A stretch of 33,843 nt of DNA from Phycisphaeraceae bacterium (GTDB lineage: Bacteria > Planctomycetota > Phycisphaerae > Phycisphaerales > Phycisphaeraceae). A program made the translations under genes and the position numbers. The DNA lies in NCBI GenBank assembly GCA_020851395.1, contig JADZCW010000059.1, positions 1-33,843 of the forward strand, read 5' to 3'. Numbering within the stretch: the stretch's first letter is position 1; each line of letters begins with the position of its first letter. The notes under the pieces were generated by a model. That model did no database searches, was not told the DNA's origin, and saw nothing but the letters and a program-made list of their open reading frames with translations. Shown piece by piece: positions 16,961-26,230 of the stretch.

Positions 16961-17155
16961 ATGGGAGCGGCAGGATTCGAACCCTGCCGGAAACCTTCGA
17001 AAAAGACCGGGGATGATGAGGGGTGCGGCGCGAAATCAGGCGCACCTGCTAAGGATCTCGAGGAAGACCCTGATTTAGAAGAGCTTGTGCGACGCTGGCC
17101 CTCTCTGCCGGCGGCTGTCCGCCGCGCGGTGGCTGCGCTCGTCGCTGCCTACTGA
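16961..17155 (+). pseudogene. Displaced C-terminal tail of the element integrase (rejoined in frame in the excised circle)
   Basis: ORF MGAAGFEPCRKPSKKTGDDEGCGAKSGAPAKDLEEDPDLEELVRRWPSLPAAVRRAVAALVAAY. Its first residues GAAGFEP are the att-core translation, in the same frame as the integrase end VGAAGFEPATKRL. Confidence 0.75.
16962..16983. repeat. attL core (duplicate of the tRNA-Met 3' end)
   Basis: TGGGAGCGGCAGGATTCGAACC, identical to 26158-26179. Confidence 0.93.
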
Positions 17156-17233
17156 GAACACCCGCGGGCCGGGTGTCCGGCTCGCGTTTCATACCCTGCC
17201 GGCCGCTCAGCCGGCGCAATGAGGAGAACGAAC

Positions 17234-17668
17234 ATGACGACGAACACGCACGTTTTTCCCAACGATCTTCGGAACTGTGATCCCGACTCGGCGGTTCTGC
17301 CCGAGGCCGAGCAGGCCGGCGCGCCGCCCTGCTCGGCGGATGAGGAGGTGGGCGACGACGTGGGAGCCGTCGAGGAGTATGGGGATGGAGTTGTGACGCT
17401 GGCGGCCGATGTCACGCCGGGCGGCGCGTCGGTAGTGATTCGTGCGAAAAACAGTGGCGGCGTGGAGGTGGCGGTGGTCAGCTTGACCGCATGGGCGGTA
17501 CGCCATATCGACGCATTATGCAAGCTCTACGAAGCGCATTCCGCATTGTTCACGCTTTACGATGATCTGGGAGCAGCGGGCGAGGATCGGGGGGAAGTCG
17601 CGGCAATTTCCGATCGGATGGAAGAGCTTGTCCACGATCTTAAGTCAGTTGTTTGTCAGCAGTTGTGA
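17234..17668 (+). CDS. Element-encoded hypothetical protein
   Basis: ATG at 17234 preceded by GAGGAG (about 17221-17226); 144 aa from this start, no recognisable domain. Confidence 0.6.
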   Translation: MTTNTHVFPNDLRNCDPDSAVLPEAEQAGAPPCSADEEVGDDVGAVEEYGDGVVTLAADVTPGGASVVIRAKNSGGVEVAVVSLTAWAVRHIDALCKLYEAHSALFTLYDDLGAAGEDRGEVAAISDRMEELVHDLKSVVCQQL

Positions 17669-17674
17669 CGCTAG

Positions 17675-17712
17675 GCCCGTCGGCGGGGAACCTCCGGCGG
17701 GCTATTTGAATA
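17675..17712 (+). terminator. Possible rho-independent terminator
   Basis: GCCCGTCGG (17675-17683) / CCGGCGGGC (17694-17702) stem with one G-T wobble, followed by the AT-rich TATTTGAATA. Confidence 0.4.
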
Positions 17713-17799
17713 AACAATGCTGCATAATTTCTACAGAGCACTGGATGGACATGACGACACAATAATTGTAGAGTTTCGCGAACACCCAGGAGCCCCACA

Positions 17800-18291
17800 A
17801 TGCGACACGGCATTTCCAGAGCTGGTTACGAGGCCATGTATGCCCCGGCTAAGGATTACCCCATCCATACCGAAGCAGCAGTGGTCGAGTTGCGATCACG
17901 TGGATACGACATCCGCGTGCCAGGGCTGCGCTACTTGCTGAAAAGCCAGCAGGTCGCCGGCCCTGCAGGCGAGGAGAGAAACTTTCAGTGGGGGCCAGAG
18001 GACATCGACCGGGTTGCGGACTGGCTCGAGGATGCCAAGCAGTTTGTCCCGACGGCGATGGCGAACTACGCCGAGTACCTCGACGGCGATCAAGTGGCCC
18101 AGGCGGAGGCGAAATTCTGCGCGGAAAACCCCTTGACTCCGCGCCTCATGGCCGTCAAAACGATCTTCCCAGGCCTCCCCGGACTCGGCATCCCCGGCCG
18201 CGTTGAGCTTCGAAAGATGACGCCGGAGGAAGAGGCCGAACTCGCCAAAGCCGCCGAAGCCGCGCGACGCGCCGGCAAGGGCGATTTTTAA
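17800..18291 (+). CDS. Element-encoded hypothetical protein immediately upstream of the capsid gene; possible MerR/HTH-like N-terminus
   Basis: 163-aa ORF, 2 nt from the capsid ORF; segment VVELRSRGYDIRVPGLRYLLKSQQVAGP...WGPEDIDRVADWL is reminiscent of a DNA-binding fold (weak). Confidence 0.6.
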   Translation: MRHGISRAGYEAMYAPAKDYPIHTEAAVVELRSRGYDIRVPGLRYLLKSQQVAGPAGEERNFQWGPEDIDRVADWLEDAKQFVPTAMANYAEYLDGDQVAQAEAKFCAENPLTPRLMAVKTIFPGLPGLGIPGRVELRKMTPEEEAELAKAAEAARRAGKGDF

Positions 18292-18292
18292 A

Positions 18293-20203
18293 ATGACCAT
18301 GACCCCCACAACGCATGCCCTGCAACTCTTGACCCTCCGGGCCGCCGCCGATGTTGCTGTAGACGTGGGCCAGGAGAAGAAGCTCCCGCGGGTCACGATT
18401 CAGGCGTATGGTGGCGGCCCGATGACGATCCCCGCGTGGGGCGTGGTGGTCGTCGACCTTGCAGGGATGGAGATTCCCGAGCAGATCGCGCTGCTGGTCG
18501 ACCACGAAAACATCCTCACCAAAGTTGCCGGCCACGGGCGCGCCCGCGTCGTCAAGGGTCGGCTGGTCGTCGAGGGCGAGCTGAGCGGGTCCAGCGAGGT
18601 TGTCGAGCAGATCGTCAACCTGGCCAGGAATGGCATGCAACTACAGGCCAGCATCGGCGCTCAACCGCTTGAGACTCGCACGATTGAGCCCGGAGAAAAA
18701 ATCAAAGTCAACGGACGCACTCAGACGCTGCCGCGCGGCGGGGTGCTCATCGTGCGAAGCCGGCTGAGAGAAACAAGCATTGTGGCGTTGGGGGCCGACG
18801 ATGAAACGTCTGTCCGCATCGCCGCGAAGCGTGAAACATCTTACGGAGAAACGAACATGGGCAAGGAAGTTCAGACCATCGACGAGCAGGCGATCCTGAG
18901 CCGCGAGCGGCAACGGGTGGCTGAGATCGACCGCCTCTGCGCCTGCGCGGCGCGGAGCGGTGTCGCGAGTGATGCGGTTGAGAAGGCGCGGGCCGAGGCC
19001 ATCGAGGGCAAGCTCGATATGGCCCAACTCAGCGCGAAGTTCCTCGATGCCGCGAGATCGCGCTTGGAGGCAATCCCCTTGATCCCTCGCCACCAGACGG
19101 TTTCAGCGGCGGCGGCGCTTGAGGGCGCTCTGCTTTGCCGGCTTGGCCGGTCCGACCTGGCCGAGAAATCTCTCGGCGCTGACGTTATGGAGCAATCCGC
19201 GAGAATCCGTGGAAGCTCTCTCCTCGACATCTGCGCGATGGCGCTCGCGCTCGACGGGCAATCGGTGCCGCACAACGACAAGAAGGGTCTGGTTCGGGCG
19301 TCGATGAGTACCGCCAGCCTGCCGATCGCGCTGGGCGGAGCCTTGGAAAAAATCCTCATCACGGGATTCAACGCGGCCGCGCCGTCGTGGAAGGGCTTTG
19401 CCGCGATCCGGTCGGTCAGCAACTTCCGCGAGCACCAAGCGGTCAGGCCGTCCGCGTCAGGCCGGCTTGAGCAGGTCGCGCCCGGGGGCGAGCTGAAGCA
19501 CGCGGCCCTGACCGAGTGGACGACGCCGCTCAAGGCGGAAACCTACGGGAAAATCGTGCGGGTCGATCGCCAGATGCTGATCAACGATGACATCGGCGTG
19601 CTTGACGAAGTGGCCTTCCAGCTTGGAAGAATGGCGCAGCGCACCCTGACCGACACGCTGTATCGTGGGCTTCTCGCTGCCGCCGCGACCCACTTCACGA
19701 CCGCCCAGAGCAACTACATCGAGGGATCGACGACGGCGCTCAGCCTCGACGCGCTCAGCACCGGCCTCGCGAGCATGAGGCGGCAGCGCGACTCCGATGG
19801 GCGCGAGATCGATGTCGTGCCGGCCGTGTTGCTCGTCCCGCCGAGCCTCGAAGCGACGGGCCGCGCGCTGCTGACGAGCGCGTTCACCGAAGACCCCTCC
19901 GCGACGTCCCCGCGACCGACCGGCAACCCAGTGGCCGGCGCGGCGCTGTCACTCGCTGTCGAGCCGAGGCTCGAGAATTCGTTGATCGCTGGGTACTCCT
20001 CGACCGCGTGGTATTTGTTCGCGGGGCCGGCTGATTCACCGTGGCTGGTTGGCTACTTGAACGGCCAGGAAAACCCGACGATCGAATACCACGGCCTCGA
20101 CAGTTCCACCGACACGCTGGGCATGACCTGGCGGGTTTACCACGACTTCGCCGTGGCCGCCGGCGATCCAAAAGCGGGCTTCAAGAGCAAGGGCGCCGCT
20201 TAA
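18293..20203 (+). CDS. Prohead protease/HK97-fold major capsid protein fusion (Mu gpT-like capsid domain)
   Basis: N-terminal protease-like block with conserved His (LLVDHENILTKVAGHGRARVVKGRLVVEGELSGSSEVVEQIVNLARNGMQLQASIG, candidate His/Ser pair), helical linker, then a capsid-like domain (KAETYGKIVRVDRQMLINDDIGVLDEVAFQLGRMAQRTLTDTLYRGLLA ... VVPAVLLVPPSLEATGRALL ... WYLFAGPADSPWLVGYLNGQENPTIEY). Confidence 0.85.
   Translation: MTMTPTTHALQLLTLRAAADVAVDVGQEKKLPRVTIQAYGGGPMTIPAWGVVVVDLAGMEIPEQIALLVDHENILTKVAGHGRARVVKGRLVVEGELSGSSEVVEQIVNLARNGMQLQASIGAQPLETRTIEPGEKIKVNGRTQTLPRGGVLIVRSRLRETSIVALGADDETSVRIAAKRETSYGETNMGKEVQTIDEQAILSRERQRVAEIDRLCACAARSGVASDAVEKARAEAIEGKLDMAQLSAKFLDAARSRLEAIPLIPRHQTVSAAAALEGALLCRLGRSDLAEKSLGADVMEQSARIRGSSLLDICAMALALDGQSVPHNDKKGLVRASMSTASLPIALGGALEKILITGFNAAAPSWKGFAAIRSVSNFREHQAVRPSASGRLEQVAPGGELKHAALTEWTTPLKAETYGKIVRVDRQMLINDDIGVLDEVAFQLGRMAQRTLTDTLYRGLLAAAATHFTTAQSNYIEGSTTALSLDALSTGLASMRRQRDSDGREIDVVPAVLLVPPSLEATGRALLTSAFTEDPSATSPRPTGNPVAGAALSLAVEPRLENSLIAGYSSTAWYLFAGPADSPWLVGYLNGQENPTIEYHGLDSSTDTLGMTWRVYHDFAVAAGDPKAGFKSKGAA
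18844..18859 (+). promoter_or_regulatory. Candidate internal ribosome binding site and in-frame ATG (18857) inside the protease-capsid fusion
   Basis: CGGAGAAACGAACATG; ATG at 18857 is in frame with 18293 (offset 564 = 188 codons) and falls between the protease and capsid domains. Confidence 0.5.
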
Positions 20204-20220
20204 TCTCAACTCCTCAGGGT

Positions 20221-20234
20221 CCCGCCTTGGCGGG
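20221..20234 (+). terminator. GC-rich hairpin just downstream of the capsid gene (terminator-like, no U-tract)
   Basis: CCCGCC-TT-GGCGGG perfect inverted repeat. Confidence 0.3.
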
Positions 20235-20414
20235 CGGGGCCGCGATCACTCGGCGGCGGCGGAAACGTCACCGTCGGGTTTAGCGGTGTGGAGCGAGCGG
20301 CCCGAGTTGCCGCTTGCCCCCGCCGATCAGATTCGCAGGTTCGGCAGTTCAACCCGGCAACAATCGACCGGCGCGATGTTCGGCGCGATCGGTCTATCGT
20401 GAGGAGTACACGCC

Positions 20415-20627
20415 ATGACCGGACTCGATGTCGGTGGCCAGGCCGCCCCGTTGCTCGTCAGCGAGCGAGAGGCCGCCAAGATGCTGGGGCTCTGCACCAA
20501 GACACTCTATTCGCTGCGACAAGCCGGCAAGCTTCCGACCGTGCGAGTCGGTCAGCGCGTGCTCTATGACCCCGCGGACCTCCGCGCGTTCATTCAGCGG
20601 CAGAAGGTCACGGGGGGTGCGGCATGA
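20415..20627 (+). CDS. AlpA/excisionase-like helix-turn-helix protein
   Basis: LLVSEREAAKMLGLCTKTLYSLRQAGKLPTVRVGQRVLYDPADLRAFIQRQK; ends overlapping the primase start. Confidence 0.82.
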   Translation: MTGLDVGGQAAPLLVSEREAAKMLGLCTKTLYSLRQAGKLPTVRVGQRVLYDPADLRAFIQRQKVTGGAA

Positions 20628-23596
20628 CACCCACCGAGCTTGTTTTGAGCCGACTCCCCGACGCCCGCCAGGCCGGCGACGGCTGGACCGCGCATTGCCC
20701 AAACCCCGAGCATGAAGACCGCCGACCATCGCTGTCCGTCACTGAGGGCTCCGACGGCCGCGCGCTTCTGCATTGCTTTGGCGGCTGTTCGACCGAAAAG
20801 GTAGTCGCGGCCATGGGGCTGAAAATGGCGAACCTGATGCCCCCCCGGCGCCAGATGGCGGCCAGACCAGCCGCGAAGCCCGCCCCCACGGCGCCCGCCG
20901 CGAGCAAGCCCAAGAAGACCCGAGAGGTTTACGCGACGGCCGAGGCCGCGATTGCGGCCCTCGAGCGCCACCGCGGCAAGCCGGCGGGTGTGTGGACCTA
21001 CTGCGACGCCCAGGGCGAGGCCGTCGGCGCGGTGCTCCGTTGGGACGGGCCGAACGGAAAGGACGTCCTGCCCCTGGCCCGGTCGGCCGAGGGCTGGAGC
21101 GTGGGCGCGATGCCCGCGCCCCGGCCGCTCTTCGGCCTGCCCGAGATCCTGGCCCGGCCCGGGGAACTGGTGGCCGTCGTCGAGGGCGAGAAGTGCGTCG
21201 ACGCGGCCCGGTCGATCGGCCTGCTGGCGACAACCTCAGCCGGCGGAGCGCAGGCCGCACGCAAGACGAGCTGGGAGCAGCTCGCGGGCCGCGAGGTGGT
21301 GATCCTGCCCGACCATGACACGCCAGGCGAGAAGTACGCGGCCGAAGTGGCTGAGATTTTGCGGGCGCTCACCCCGCCGTCCGTGGTGAAGATTGTGCGG
21401 CTGTGGGATCACTGGCCGGACCTGGCCGAGGGCGGGGACATCGCCGACGTGCTCGTCCTGACGGGTGGGGACGTCGAGGCCGTCCGGGCCGCGGTGCTCG
21501 AGCTGATCGCCAAGGCGCCGGCCGAGGAAGCGACACCGGCCGCACCGGCGACGGCGCCAGCGGACGCATCGGACGATGGCCGCGAGCGCCCTCCGACCCA
21601 AGCGGAAGAGCTGGTGGCGATGGCGCTCGAGCGCTACAGCTTCGCACGCACGCCAGCAGGCGAGGCGTTCGCGGTCCTGAAAGACGGTCCTAACCTGGCC
21701 GTGATGCTCCGGGGCTCATCCGACAGCCTGCGCGCCGCCCTGTCCCGCGAATACCGCCGAGCTTGCGGGCGTGTTCCGAGCAGTTCGGCCCTCGCCGATG
21801 CGGTGGTGGCGCTGTCGGGCGAGGCCCTCGAGGGCGAGCCCGAGGACGTCCGCCTGCGCGTCGCTGAGCATGAGGGCGGGATCGTCCTGGACTTGGGCGA
21901 CGCCACGGGCCGGGCGGTGGTGGTCAAGCCCGAGGGCTGGGCTGTGGTCGAACGATCGCCGGTTCTCTTCCGGCGAACGGCCCTGACCAGCGCTCTTCCC
22001 GAGCCCATCCGGGGAGGCCGGCTCGCCAACCTCCGCGAGCTGCTGAACGTGTCGGATGAGGGCTGGCCGCTCTTGAAGGGCTGGCTGGTCAGCGCGTTCA
22101 TGCCGGCGATCCCTCACCCGCTGCTGATGCTCGGCGGCCAGCAGGGCACGGGCAAGAGCACGGCGGCGCGGCTGCTGATGGGGCTGTCCGATCCCTCGCC
22201 GGCCCCGCTGCGAAGCGAGCCCCGCGACGCTGAAAGCTGGGCGGTGGCGTGTTCGGGATCGTGGGGGCTGGCCATCGACAACGTGAGCGGAATCTCCGGC
22301 TGGTGGTCTGACGCGCTGTGCAAGGCGGTGACGGGTGACGGGCTGGTTCGCCGAAAGCTCTTCAGTGATTCGGAGCTGTCGGTTCTCAGCTTCAGGCGCG
22401 TCGTCGTTCTGACCAGCATCGACGCCGGTTCCCTGAGGGGCGACCTCGGCGACCGCGTGCTCCTGGTCGACCTCCAGCCCATCCCAGACACCCAGCGCCG
22501 CACCGAGGCCGACCTCGACGCCCGCTACGCCGCGGCCAGGCCGGAGATCCTTGGCGCACTGCTGGACCTTCTGGCGGCAACGCTGCGAGAGCTTCCGAAC
22601 GTCCAGCTCGAGAACTCGCCCCGGATGGCCGACTTCGCGCGCGTCCTGGCAGCGGTGGACGCTGCGGACGATTCGGACGGTGCCTCTCTACCAACCTACC
22701 TCGCCCAACGTGGGCGCGTGGCGGAAGAGGTGGTCGAGGGTGACGCCGTGGCCCAGGCCGTCGCGTCGCTGGTCCGGCGGTGCGATGGGGCATGGTCGGG
22801 CTCGGCCTCTGACCTCTTGGCGGCCATCACGCCCTCGCCGGCGCCCCATGGCTGGCCCAAGTCGCCCCGTTCGCTGGCGGGGCGCCTGCGCCGCATCGTC
22901 CCTGCCCTGGCCACGGTGGGCGTTGTTCTCACCGAGGGCCGAGCGCCGGATCGTCAGAGAACAAGAACATGGAGAATTGAAGAGAGGGAGAAAGAATCGT
23001 CCGAATCGTCCGCATCGTCCAGAATCCTGGTTGGCGCTAGCGCCACGGCCGTTTTTGGTGCGGACGATTCGTCGGACGATTGCGGACGATCGGGCTCAAT
23101 CGTCCGCGAGCGGCAGGGCCTGCTGGTCCCCGATGAAGAGTTGGAGGGCGAGTTTGCGGACGATGCGGACGAAGCCGGACAGACGGAGAAAACCCATAGT
23201 CCTACCTTAACCAATGACACGCCAAACACTTGCGAGAAGTCGGACGATTCGGACGCAAAATCGCCAGCTTCATCTAAGGGGGTAGGGGTGACAATGCACA
23301 CGCCCCCTCAGTCGGTGGGGTGTGACGACACGACAAACGCCGGCGTGGACGTGGACGGTGCGGACGATCAATCACGGCCCCCCTCTATTCGATGGAGTCT
23401 GCCGCGACAGAGAACGGGTGAGTTGATCGGCAAGGCCCACCGAGCTGGCGACAGGGGAAGGGCTCGAGTGATTCGTCGCAAGTGGCGGGACGGCTTGGCC
23501 CGCGAGTTCCTGGCAGGGACCGACCCCGTAACTGCCGAGCTGAAGGTCGGCGCGATGATCTTGGACACGTTCGCCACCACAACGAAGGTAGGATAA
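20624..23596 (+). CDS. Primase-helicase replication protein (CHC2-like zinc finger + TOPRIM + P-loop ATPase)
   Basis: HCPNPEHEDRRPSLSVTEGSDGRALLHCFGGC zinc finger; VAVVEGEKCVDAARSIGLLATTSAGG...VVILPDHDTPG TOPRIM; LMLGGQQGTGKSTAARLLMGL Walker A; GLAIDNVSG Walker B-like; low-complexity C-terminus. Confidence 0.88.
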   Translation: MTPTELVLSRLPDARQAGDGWTAHCPNPEHEDRRPSLSVTEGSDGRALLHCFGGCSTEKVVAAMGLKMANLMPPRRQMAARPAAKPAPTAPAASKPKKTREVYATAEAAIAALERHRGKPAGVWTYCDAQGEAVGAVLRWDGPNGKDVLPLARSAEGWSVGAMPAPRPLFGLPEILARPGELVAVVEGEKCVDAARSIGLLATTSAGGAQAARKTSWEQLAGREVVILPDHDTPGEKYAAEVAEILRALTPPSVVKIVRLWDHWPDLAEGGDIADVLVLTGGDVEAVRAAVLELIAKAPAEEATPAAPATAPADASDDGRERPPTQAEELVAMALERYSFARTPAGEAFAVLKDGPNLAVMLRGSSDSLRAALSREYRRACGRVPSSSALADAVVALSGEALEGEPEDVRLRVAEHEGGIVLDLGDATGRAVVVKPEGWAVVERSPVLFRRTALTSALPEPIRGGRLANLRELLNVSDEGWPLLKGWLVSAFMPAIPHPLLMLGGQQGTGKSTAARLLMGLSDPSPAPLRSEPRDAESWAVACSGSWGLAIDNVSGISGWWSDALCKAVTGDGLVRRKLFSDSELSVLSFRRVVVLTSIDAGSLRGDLGDRVLLVDLQPIPDTQRRTEADLDARYAAARPEILGALLDLLAATLRELPNVQLENSPRMADFARVLAAVDAADDSDGASLPTYLAQRGRVAEEVVEGDAVAQAVASLVRRCDGAWSGSASDLLAAITPSPAPHGWPKSPRSLAGRLRRIVPALATVGVVLTEGRAPDRQRTRTWRIEEREKESSESSASSRILVGASATAVFGADDSSDDCGRSGSIVRERQGLLVPDEELEGEFADDADEAGQTEKTHSPTLTNDTPNTCEKSDDSDAKSPASSKGVGVTMHTPPQSVGCDDTTNAGVDVDGADDQSRPPSIRWSLPRQRTGELIGKAHRAGDRGRARVIRRKWRDGLAREFLAGTDPVTAELKVGAMILDTFATTTKVG
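22665..23368. repeat. Cluster of CGGACGAT/ATCGTCCG iteron-like 8-mers within the primase 3' region
   Basis: Exact copies at 22665(+), 22996(-), 23005(-), 23061(+), 23073(+), 23083(+), 23099(-), 23157(+), 23241(+), 23361(+); near matches at 23014 (ATCGTCCA) and 23166 (CGGACGAA). Confidence 0.8.
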
Positions 23597-23918
23597 AAGG
23601 TACTTCCCCGATGGGTGAGCGCGCCGACACCCTGCCGGGAACAGTCGCGCGGCGGGTGAATTTTTTACATGTTGCAGCGAGATACCGCCCCATGCCATCA
23701 AATGACGGCCCCACCATCCGAACGATGGCCAAGACGGACCCGACCCGGCCCGCTGACCACGGCCCCGGAGGGTGTCGACGGCCCGCCGCATACGCCCGCC
23801 AGGCCCGGACCCCAACGGGACGGCGGCGCCGGGCGTAGGCGACGACGGGCAAGGCAGGCCCCCGGTGGTGGCGTAAGGGCGAGAACTGGCCAGGCATGAC
23901 ATCGAACGAGGTAGACCC

Positions 23919-24152
23919 ATGACGAAGCGAGAGCGTGAAAAGGACGTCGCGGCTGAGCTGAGACAGGCCATCGCCCAGGCGAGGAAGGGCGGGCTGTCGA
24001 TCTACCGGCTGGCCAAGCTGTCGGGGGTTCGGCTGTCCGGCTGCCAGTTGATCGCGGCGGGGAAGACGATCCCCAGGCTGGACACCGCGGAAAAACTTGC
24101 CAAGGCCATCGGGTACACCTTGACATTGCACCATAATAAAGGTATAACCTGA
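23919..24152 (+). CDS. XRE-family HTH regulator
   Basis: LSIYRLAKLSGVRLSGCQLIAAGKTIPRLDTAEKLAKAIGYTLTL. Confidence 0.82.
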   Translation: MTKREREKDVAAELRQAIAQARKGGLSIYRLAKLSGVRLSGCQLIAAGKTIPRLDTAEKLAKAIGYTLTLHHNKGIT

Positions 24153-24216
24153 GGCGGGTAGACCTTCCCGCTCCGGCGGTTCACGTTGGACCGTCAGGCG
24201 GGGCCGAGGGAAAGCC

Positions 24217-24486
24217 ATGATGTTGACGGTGCGCCAGGTTGCCGAACGGCTCGCAATCAGCCCGGAAAGGGTGCGATACCTGATCGCCTACGGGCACCTG
24301 GCGGCAATCGATGTCAGCCCAAACCGGATCAGGCCACGGTACCGCATCGATGAGGCGGCCCTTCAGGACTACATCGAAAACGGTAGCCGGAAGGGTAGGA
24401 CGGGCTTTGAAAGTTGCCAGCGGACGCCCAATCGTGAGGCGATGGCCTTTGTCGAAGCGCTGATGTCGCGGAAGAGGAAGCGGTGA
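24217..24486 (+). CDS. Excisionase/MerR-like helix-turn-helix protein
   Basis: MLTVRQVAERLAISPERVRYLIAYGHLAAIDVSPNRIRPRYRIDEAALQDYIEN. Confidence 0.78.
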   Translation: MMLTVRQVAERLAISPERVRYLIAYGHLAAIDVSPNRIRPRYRIDEAALQDYIENGSRKGRTGFESCQRTPNREAMAFVEALMSRKRKR

Positions 24487-24884
24487 TGATCGGTCAGTGT
24501 CAATCACAGCCCGTGAGCAAGCCGAAGTCCGGGGACCGAGGGTCAAGAGGGCGACGTCCCGCGCTGGTTCTGAGGGTTGGCCCCTTTGACTATATGGTTC
24601 ATTTCGTCGATGGGCTGATCCGGCACAAGGGCAAGACGTGTGTGGGGCTGTGCGATAACGACGCCCACGAGATTCACGTCGCCCGCTGCGGCAGTGAGGC
24701 GCAACAGACCCAGGTGATTTTCCACGAGTACATGCATGCCTGGGTCTATCACTTCGGGCCGACGATGATGATGGATGAGGAGAGGATTTGCGACCTGTTC
24801 GGCCTGGCGATGACGCAGTTTGTGCGCGACCTCTCGATCGGCACGATCCCCATGCGACGCGTCCGACTTCCCATGACGAGGTGA
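24483..24884 (+). CDS. ImmA/IrrE-like HExxH metallopeptidase
   Basis: IFHEYMHAW (HExxH) followed by MDEERICDLFGLAMTQF; ATGA overlap with the upstream HTH gene. Confidence 0.65.
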   Translation: MMIGQCQSQPVSKPKSGDRGSRGRRPALVLRVGPFDYMVHFVDGLIRHKGKTCVGLCDNDAHEIHVARCGSEAQQTQVIFHEYMHAWVYHFGPTMMMDEERICDLFGLAMTQFVRDLSIGTIPMRRVRLPMTR

Positions 24885-24887
24885 ACC

Positions 24888-26198
24888 ATGGCGAGCATCG
24901 TAGACGATCCCAACGGCAGGAAGCGGATTCAGTTTGTCGCGGCGGACGGCCGGCGGCGGCAGGCGCGGCTGGGCAAGATGACCATGAAGCAGGCCGAGGC
25001 GGTCAAATTGCACGTCGAGCGGTTGATCGTCGCGCCGTTCTCGGAGCTGCCGCTTGACACGGCGCAATGGCTGGCGGGGCTCGAGGACACACTTCACGGC
25101 CGGCTGGCAGCGGTGGGTCTGGTCAAGCCCCGCAAGGCGAAGCGCGGCGGCGGGCTCAAGAAGTTCATCGACGACTATTTGGCCCAGCGGCCGGACGTCA
25201 AGCCGGGAACGATGATCGTCATGAGGCAGGCCGAGCGGCACCTTGTCCGATTCCTCGGCGAGGACACCGACCCGGCTGAGGTCACGCCGGCGGACGCAGA
25301 CGCCTACAGGGCTCACCTGCTGGGCGAGAGCCGTTCCAGGGCGACGGTGGCGAAGTGGTGCTACTACGCCCGTCATTACTTCGAGGTGGCCCGGCGGCGA
25401 AAGCTCCTCACTGAGAACCCCTTTGCCCATATCAAGGGGCAGGTTCACGGCAACCCGGCCCGACGGGTGTTCGTGCCGGCGGAGCATGCGCGGCGCGTGA
25501 TCGCGGCGGCACCAGACCCACAGTGGAAGCTGCTGATTGCCATGGCACGCTGGCAGGGCGTCCGAGTTCCGAGCGAGGTTGTGGACCTGCGATGGACCGA
25601 CGTGAACTTCGAGCTGTCGCGGCTCACGATCAGGGCGAGCAAGACGGCCCATCATGCCGACGGGGGTATCCGCGTGGTGCCGATCTTCCCCGAGGTCAGG
25701 CCCTATCTGCTGGACGTGTTCGAGCACGCCCCCGAGGGAGAAGCCCACGTCTTGCCGCGGTTCCGTGACGGCGGGATGAACCTACGGACCCAATTCAATC
25801 GGTACGTCGCTGCGGCGGGGCTGGCGCCATGGCCTAAGCCCTGGCAGAACATGCGGAGCACGCGGGCGACGGAGCTTGCGGACAAGTTCCCGAGCCACGT
25901 CTGCACGGCCTGGCTGGGGCACAACGAGGCGGTGGCGAACGAGTTCTACAGGCAAGTGACCGACGAGCACTTCACGCGTGCCGTGGCTGATGCGACGCCC
26001 ACGACCGTAGCCCATGACGCCGAGGCGGCGCGAAATCGGGCGCAGAATGCGTCGGAACTGGTCGGGACAGCCGAGAACGTCGAGAGGACCGGCGAAGAGA
26101 ATCAAGCGGATTTACCGACGCATTCTCATAAGTACCGATCAGTACATGACTTAGAAGTGGGAGCGGCAGGATTCGAACCTGCGACCAAGCGATTATGA
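24888..26198 (+). CDS. Tyrosine recombinase/integrase (integrated-form 3' end runs into the tRNA)
   Basis: N-terminal SAM-like and catalytic domains: RWQGVRVPSEVVDLRWTDV, SKTAHHADGGIRVVPI, NMRSTRATELADKFPSHVCTAWLGHNEAVANEFYRQVTDEHF; C-terminus VGAAGFEPATKRL is the translated tRNA antisense strand. Confidence 0.93.
   Translation: MASIVDDPNGRKRIQFVAADGRRRQARLGKMTMKQAEAVKLHVERLIVAPFSELPLDTAQWLAGLEDTLHGRLAAVGLVKPRKAKRGGGLKKFIDDYLAQRPDVKPGTMIVMRQAERHLVRFLGEDTDPAEVTPADADAYRAHLLGESRSRATVAKWCYYARHYFEVARRRKLLTENPFAHIKGQVHGNPARRVFVPAEHARRVIAAAPDPQWKLLIAMARWQGVRVPSEVVDLRWTDVNFELSRLTIRASKTAHHADGGIRVVPIFPEVRPYLLDVFEHAPEGEAHVLPRFRDGGMNLRTQFNRYVAAAGLAPWPKPWQNMRSTRATELADKFPSHVCTAWLGHNEAVANEFYRQVTDEHFTRAVADATPTTVAHDAEAARNRAQNASELVGTAENVERTGEENQADLPTHSHKYRSVHDLEVGAAGFEPATKRL
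26158..26179. repeat. attR core (within the intact tRNA-Met 3' end)
   Basis: TGGGAGCGGCAGGATTCGAACC, identical to 16962-16983. Confidence 0.93.
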
Positions 26199-26230
26199 GT
26201 CGCCCGCTCTGACCCCTGAGCTACGCTCCC
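26158..26230 (-). tRNA. tRNA-Met (anticodon CAT)
   Basis: Minus strand GGGAGCG-TA-GCTCAGGGGTCAGAGC-G-GGCGA-CTCATAA-TCGCT-TGGTC-GCAGG-TTCGAAT-CCTGC-CGCTCCC-A folds as a full cloverleaf; CAT could also be tRNA-Ile2, but the loop context favours Met. Confidence 0.95.

What the first reader, a model, noticed from the sequence alone, without database searches (positions are those of the whole stretch)
22665..23368. Iteron-like array of CGGACGAT embedded in the coding sequence of the replication gene
Seen: ten exact copies of CGGACGAT or its reverse complement in ~704 bp, plus two one-mismatch copies. One subcluster has exact 9-bp spacing (22996, 23005, 23014). The same DNA word is read in different frames and orientations (GCG GAC GAT = ADD; TGC GGA CGA T = CGR; TCG TCC = SS; ATC GTC CGC = IVR), so the protein sequence is not what is being conserved. 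Naive expectation for an 8-mer on both strands in this span is far below one copy. Established: P4 alpha and SaPI Rep replication proteins bind short iterons at origins near their own genes. Inference: the replication origin lies inside the primase 3' end, and the S/D-rich low-complexity C-terminus is a by-product of that DNA-level constraint.
Basis: partly seen in the sequence, partly recalled or inferred. Interest (0 to 1): 0.82.

Follow-up and report, generated by a model that had tools for sequence, protein, structure and literature searches.

The report
Replication-origin repeats inside the initiator gene
A small mobile DNA element appears to carry its replication start site as a row of 9-letter DNA repeats hidden inside its own replication gene, just after the part that encodes the DNA-reading domain, and distant relatives keep the place but change the repeat together with that domain.

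Summary
The repeat is real. Ten exact CGGACGAT copies lie in 22665-23368; same-protein codon shuffles average 0.7 (max 6 in 5000). The words occupy five of six frame/strand classes, so DNA, not peptide, is conserved. Comparison supports the interpretation. Across 123 homologues the best 8-mer count is 5.8-5.9 in 500-bp windows at the end of the winged-helix (WH) codons and 2.2-2.8 elsewhere. Each lineage has its own word, usually spaced 9 bp. The array is usually inside the ORF, but after the stop in several phages and plasmids. Iteron similarity tracks the WH domain, not the helicase. In Actinobacteria 26 of 27 wing/iteron pairs agree. Two elements of one Microbispora strain are about 97% identical except for a swapped array. 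The helicase fold matches SaPI5 primase-helicase; the array is encoded in a disordered linker. Best reading: the WH domain binds its own intragenic iterons, which form the origin of a 9.2-kb integrated element. Origin-in-initiator is known (lambda O, pSK41), as are iterons just 3' of rep (SaPI). So this is a new variant of a known kind, in a helicase-WH family without a Pfam model. Binding and origin activity were not tested.

The parts
16962..16983 (.). attachment-site direct repeat, copy 1 (TGGGAGCGGCAGGATTCGAACC): left end of the ~9.2-kb element
   Evidence: 22-nt exact direct repeat with 26158-26179, equal to the 3' end of the tRNA-Met gene
26158..26179 (.). attachment-site direct repeat, copy 2, inside tRNA-Met (26157-26230, minus strand)
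20624..23596 (+). primase-helicase / replication initiator ORF, 990 aa
   Evidence: phrog_6088 DNA primase 5.7e-26
20624..21568 (+). N-terminal zinc-ribbon and Toprim (DnaG-type) primase part
   Evidence: Toprim 9e-4 and Zn_ribbon_DnaG 8e-3, both below the Pfam cut-offs
21809..22744 (+). D5/SaPI-Rep-like AAA+ helicase part and linker helices
   Evidence: predicted structure, most blocks pLDDT above 90; PDB fold matches 7ola SaPI5 primase-helicase 3.3e-7 and 8iqi AsfvPrimPol 3.1e-7
22745..22984 (+). winged-helix domain (H1-S1-H2-H3-S2-S3), predicted iteron reader
   Evidence: mean pLDDT 93.5, secondary-structure order; similarity tracks iteron similarity
22665..22681 (+). iteron pair: exact 22665, one mismatch 22674, 9-bp spacing
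22996..23021 (-). iteron trio at 9-bp spacing: exact 22996 and 23005, one mismatch 23014
23061..23090 (+). three exact iterons: 23061, 23073, 23083
23099..23106 (-). exact iteron
23157..23173 (+). iteron pair at 9-bp spacing: exact 23157, one mismatch 23166
23241..23255 (+). exact iteron plus partial second copy
23361..23368 (+). exact iteron, last of the array
23042..23395 (+). codons of the disordered linker (aa 807-924) that hosts most of the array
   Evidence: pLDDT below 50
23396..23584 (+). C-terminal helical module (aa 925-987), after the array
   Evidence: three helices, pLDDT 77-90; no Pfam match
22938..23034 (.). local AT peak (57% against 34% for the element), candidate melting site 1
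   Evidence: not a family-wide signal
23169..23266 (.). local AT peak (53%) between iteron groups, candidate melting site 2
   Evidence: not a family-wide signal
18293..20203 (+). phage head protease-major capsid fusion of the same element
   Evidence: PF25209 4.6e-40; phrog_4523 9.5e-65
24217..24486 (+). excisionase-like HTH protein
   Evidence: phrog_2907 3.3e-7; HTH_17 above cut-off
24888..26198 (+). tyrosine integrase
   Evidence: PF00589 above cut-off; phrog_1 2e-31

Best explanation
[quoted passage not shown] The initiator binds its own gene through a winged helix encoded directly upstream of the array: the recognition helix and wing read an 8-bp word plus one spacer base, giving 9-bp pitch. 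Several bound molecules would assemble the D5/SaPI-Rep-like helicase there, open nearby DNA, and let the fused Toprim primase start synthesis. The linker between the winged helix and a small C-terminal module tolerates almost any peptide, so its codons can carry the origin. Because reader and sites are neighbours, one recombination event can exchange specificity, and lineages diverge quickly in iteron sequence. Shown here: the array, its DNA-level conservation, its conserved position, 9-bp pitch, and coupling to the WH domain. Inferred: binding, melting and origin activity.
For: (1) The array exceeds same-protein codon nulls: 10 against 0.7, max 6; across 53 in-ORF arrays the observed mean is 8.0 against 2.7, and 49/53 exceed every null. 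(2) Metagene over 123 homologues: best 8-mer count 5.8-5.9 at the WH end against 2.2-2.8 elsewhere within 3 kb; at least 5 copies in 56-57% against 0-8%. (3) Words differ per lineage; 192 of 382 same-strand neighbours are exactly 9 bp apart, and 27 of 62 outside ORFs, so the pitch is a DNA property. (4) Position does not depend on coding: 591 of 747 sites lie in the ORF, the rest after the stop; phage L002 and plasmids pFP11 and pSTS2 have it downstream of the stop. (5) Coupling: iteron versus WH Mantel r 0.139 (1/500), partial 0.157 (0/500); versus helicase -0.004. In Actinobacteria GPKPK wing with AGCGTCCC 12/12, GNRSR with AGCACCC 9/9, GPAP with AGCGTCCA 5/6. (6) Two elements of one Microbispora strain are mostly 94-99% identical over helicase and WH, 52-57% over the array, 96% after it, with AGCGTCCA x13 against AGCACCCG x11. 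(7) Fold: WH pLDDT 93.5; helicase matches SaPI5 primase-helicase. (8) Relatives sit on autonomous plasmids, and pFP11 RepA is reported to bind its iterons (PMC3583192). (9) DUF3987 and VapE helicase loci of the same phylum mostly lack such arrays.
Against: No binding or replication data exist for this element. About a third of homologues show no clear cluster, including the close relative L010 and L019, L061, L064, L070, L071. No family-wide AT-rich peak lies at the array (median percentile 0.57). Plasmid GC skew does not point to it, and pH6Ac and pFP11 hold other, larger repeat clusters elsewhere. The wing/iteron pairs are few when counted as independent events: 3 on supported branches, sign test p 0.25. 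L078 has the GPAP wing with the AGCACCCG iteron. Linkage alone could carry wing and array together. The WH model alone has no significant PDB match.
Confidence: 0.83

Rival explanations
1. The array is a partition or incompatibility (centromere-like) site bound by the winged helix or another element protein, and replication starts elsewhere.
For: Iteron arrays also serve as centromeres in plasmids (general knowledge). Coexisting near-identical elements differ mainly there, which fits any incompatibility determinant. pH6Ac has another intergenic array upstream of the gene.
Against: No ParA/ParB-like gene was recognised among the window element's genes searched. The array follows the initiator's WH codons across phages, plasmids and integrated elements. 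pFP11 carries its ParA gene separately from the array.
Confidence: 0.07
2. The array is an operator through which the initiator represses a promoter (autoregulation or control of a downstream gene).
For: Winged helices are often repressors; iteron-type Rep proteins can autoregulate (general knowledge).
Against: It lies at the 3' end of the gene, with no promoter-like site in 22500-24300 by a sigma-70 scan. Ten or more copies spread over hundreds of bases in either orientation are unusual for an operator. The position is kept with different downstream genes.
Confidence: 0.04
3. Protein-level or mutational origin: a low-complexity S/D linker expanded by repeat slippage, with no DNA function.
For: The stretch is predicted disordered and partly tandem.
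Against: The same word occurs on both strands and in 5 of 6 frame/strand classes. Same-protein codon nulls do not reproduce it. The pattern continues outside ORFs with the same 9-bp pitch. The words co-vary with the WH domain.
Confidence: 0.02

Closest known systems
SaPI/PICI pri-rep-ori module (SaPI Rep and its iterons)
   Same: AAA+ helicase with nearest solved folds including SaPI5 primase-helicase; predicted C-terminal winged helix; short iterons at the 3' end of or just 3' to the initiator coding part (PMC7581432, PMC6092414)
   Different: Here the iterons are inside the ORF, in a linker before another module, at 9-bp pitch; two sets flanking one AT-rich region could not be established
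pSK41 RepA_N plasmid origin
   Same: Rep boxes lie inside rep, and the codons under the origin encode a linker whose protein sequence is dispensable (PMC5703833)
   Different: Unrelated initiator: in pSK41 the N-terminal RepA_N domain binds and there is no primase-helicase
Phage lambda O protein and ori-lambda
   Same: Iterons in the middle of the initiator gene (PMC3985674)
   Different: Four 19-bp iterons and loading of host DnaB, against about 15 copies of a 9-bp unit and an own helicase
Streptomyces plasmid pFP11 RepA/iteron replicon
   Same: Carries a 46%-identical helicase-WH relative and an array of AGGGACGC x9; RepA reported to bind iterons (PMC3583192)
   Different: Array about 550 bp after the stop codon; primase is a separate gene. 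That the relative is the RepA of the cited work was not verified
Phage P4 alpha protein
   Same: Toprim primase, helicase and winged helix that binds origin repeats (as described in PMC4234260)
   Different: Location of P4 origin repeats relative to the gene was not compared here; no sequence-level relationship shown

Membership tests
SaPI/PICI-type initiator with downstream iteron origin | D5/SaPI-Rep-like AAA+ helicase | tested here: met
   PDB fold match to 7ola (3.3e-7) and 7pds
SaPI/PICI-type initiator with downstream iteron origin | C-terminal winged helix that binds the iterons | tested here: inconclusive
   Fold predicted with high confidence and coupled to iterons; binding not measured
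SaPI/PICI-type initiator with downstream iteron origin | Iterons directly 3' of the initiator coding part | tested here: met
   Metagene peak at WH end in 123 homologues; here inside the ORF
SaPI/PICI-type initiator with downstream iteron origin | Two iteron sets flanking an AT-rich region | tested here: inconclusive
   Two AT peaks in the window array, no family-wide AT signal
PICI element | PICI gene set (int, regulators, pri-rep-ori, interference genes, terS) | tested here: inconclusive
   Integrase, excisionase-like and pri-rep present; no terminase recognised; capsid-protease present
RepA_N / pSK41 intragenic origin | Initiator with RepA_N DNA-binding domain | tested here: not met
   No Pfam family for the ORF or for the helicase-WH-tail part
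RepA_N / pSK41 intragenic origin | Origin repeats in codons of a dispensable linker | tested here: inconclusive
   Array falls in a predicted disordered linker; dispensability not testable here
Lambda O origin | Homology to lambda O and about 19-bp iterons | tested here: not met
   No O-like family match; 9-bp pitch
Iteron origin in general | Autonomous replication of the iteron fragment with initiator in trans | not testable with these tools
   Needs an experiment

The most novel reading that the evidence does not exclude
A large, so far unclassified initiator-helicase family in bacterial and archaeal plasmids, phages and integrated elements carries a swappable specificity cassette: winged-helix codons followed at once by cognate iterons inside the gene. 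Diversifying selection between coexisting elements drives fast switching of the iteron word, as in the two Microbispora elements.
Probability: 0.45. Interest if true: 0.76.

Novelty: new variant of a known kind. Interest (0 to 1): 0.62.

Why it matters
It gives a sequence-only way to locate the likely origin and the origin reader of many uncharacterised phages, satellites and plasmids: look right after the winged-helix codons. It explains odd repetitive tails (SSESSASS, PSQPSQ, GAPGAPG) in annotated primase/helicase proteins as DNA-level origins. The wing/iteron pairs form a natural data set for reading the recognition code of a winged helix and for testing how incompatibility groups arise, with a ready natural swap in one strain.

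Tried and rejected
Pfam and NCBIfam naming of the helicase-WH part: no curated family. PDB sequence search gave only P-loop noise, and WH-only PDB fold search nothing significant, although RepE54 and a Rep-DUE complex appear among the weak hits. GC skew of four plasmids to locate the origin: uninformative. AT-rich melting site as a family-wide feature: not seen. Independent-pairs sign test of wing/iteron coupling: too few supported pairs. A similar array in other primase-helicase families of the phylum (DUF3987, VapE): mostly absent, with L178 and L184 as exceptions. Alignment-wide genome-contig scan with A1 failed for lack of conservation and was redone with closer sequences. Paper searches for an intragenic-iteron description of this family found none in the held library; subscription journals are mostly missing, so this is weak evidence of novelty.

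Full report
WHAT IS IN THE WINDOW. The 990-aa ORF 20624-23596 has weak zinc-ribbon and Toprim primase matches at its N-terminus, PHROG primase matches, an AAA+ helicase part, a winged helix, and a tail. It lies in a mobile element: a 22-nt direct repeat at 16962-16983 and 26158-26179 equals the 3' end of a tRNA-Met gene at 26157-26230. Between the repeats are a head protease-capsid fusion, the primase-helicase, an excisionase-like protein and a tyrosine integrase. Nearest genomes are Phycisphaerae (same-family genome G246 has the contig length of L072).

OBSERVATION. CGGACGAT occurs ten times in 22665-23368 and twice elsewhere in the window. With the protein kept fixed, codon shuffles give 0.73 on average and never more than 6. 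The trio at 22996/23005/23014 is 9-bp spaced but its third member has a mismatch. In the host genome the word is scattered, not clustered.

HOMOLOGUES. Relatives were collected from viral contigs, whole genomes, and plasmids. For 123 loci with an intact winged helix, the best 8-mer count in 500-bp windows is 5.8-5.9 at the end of the winged-helix codons and 2.2-2.8 everywhere else within 3 kb. The loci are related to one another, so these are not 123 independent events. Sixty-three of 120 loci have five or more exact copies of their own word near the WH end. More loci have degenerate or more distant arrays, and about a third show none. Words differ: AGCGTCCC, AGCGTCCA, AGCACCCG, CATCGTCA, GGTGACGA, GATGTCAC, ACACCCGC, ACCGTCCG and others.

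DNA, NOT PEPTIDE. Half of same-strand neighbours (192 of 382) are exactly 9 bp apart, also outside ORFs (27 of 62). Sites occur in both orientations and in up to five of six frame/strand classes per locus. In 49 of 53 loci with in-ORF arrays the count exceeds all 60 same-protein codon resamplings. In phage L002 and plasmids pFP11 and pSTS2 the array lies after the stop codon.

STRUCTURE. AlphaFold2 gives a confident winged helix (mean pLDDT 93.5). In the longer model, the helicase and winged helix are confident, aa ~807-924 are disordered, and aa ~925-987 form helices. The array covers the disordered linker codons and the stretch just before them. The longer model matches SaPI5 primase-helicase, AsfvPrimPol, NrS-1 and poxvirus D5/E5.

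READER AND SITE CHANGE TOGETHER. Over 43 loci with helicases less than 85% identical, iteron similarity correlates with winged-helix similarity (Mantel r 0.139, 1 of 500 permutations; partial 0.157 controlling for the helicase, 0 of 500) and not with helicase similarity (r -0.004). The effect is small in size. In the actinobacterial clade, wing classes and iteron classes agree in 26 of 27 loci, although helicases across classes can be 93% identical (L074 against L140). The exception, L078, has a TRAAG recognition helix, which in this set always goes with AGCACCC; this was noticed after the fact. On the tree the supported independent pairs are too few for significance. Linkage of neighbouring DNA is therefore not excluded as the cause of co-transfer. 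Still, L075 and L078, two elements of one strain, are almost identical up to and again after the array, while the array itself is replaced.

PRECEDENTS. SaPI Rep recognises iterons directly downstream of its gene with its C-terminal domain (PMC7581432); PICIs share this (PMC6092414). In pSK41 the origin lies inside rep, and its codons encode a linker (PMC5703833). Lambda's origin lies in the middle of O (PMC3985674). pFP11 RepA binds iterons (PMC3583192).

WHAT IS SHOWN AND WHAT IS INFERRED. Shown by computation: array, non-chance, DNA-level constraint, conserved position, pitch, coupling, disordered linker. Inferred: that the winged helix binds the array and that replication starts there. No melting site could be assigned family-wide, and plasmid GC skew did not help.

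Noticed in passing
window 16962-26179: A ~9.2-kb element in tRNA-Met with capsid-protease fusion, primase-helicase, excisionase and integrase, but no recognised portal, terminase or tail genes: a possible minimal capsid-bearing satellite.
   Followed up: partly
helicase-WH family (alignments A1, A4): The helicase-winged-helix part, with 472 candidate loci in one genome collection, matches no Pfam or NCBIfam family above its cut-off.
   Followed up: partly
L075 and L078: Two elements in one Microbispora strain, about 97% identical DNA, with the iteron array replaced as a block inside the gene.
   Followed up: yes
L178, 3' end of the ORF: A DUF3987 protein with ATCGTCAC x5, partly 9-bp spaced, tail SLSSLSSLSS: a similar array in another helicase family.
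   Followed up: no
L184, around the ORF 3' end: GGGTGAAA x7, some at 11-bp spacing, at the end of a DUF3987-type gene.
   Followed up: no
L192 (pH6Ac) about 600-1100: An intergenic AACTTTGC array (7 copies, mostly 11-bp spaced) upstream of the replication gene, besides GGAGTACAT/GGAGGCG repeats in the gene's tail.
   Followed up: no
L191 (pFP11) about 1-700: A CTGAAGAC cluster of 16 copies, larger than the iteron array, near the end of the record.
   Followed up: no
C-termini of L075, L078, L113: These actinobacterial tails end in a CxxC...C zinc-finger-like module after the array, so the ORF is kept open through the array.
   Followed up: no
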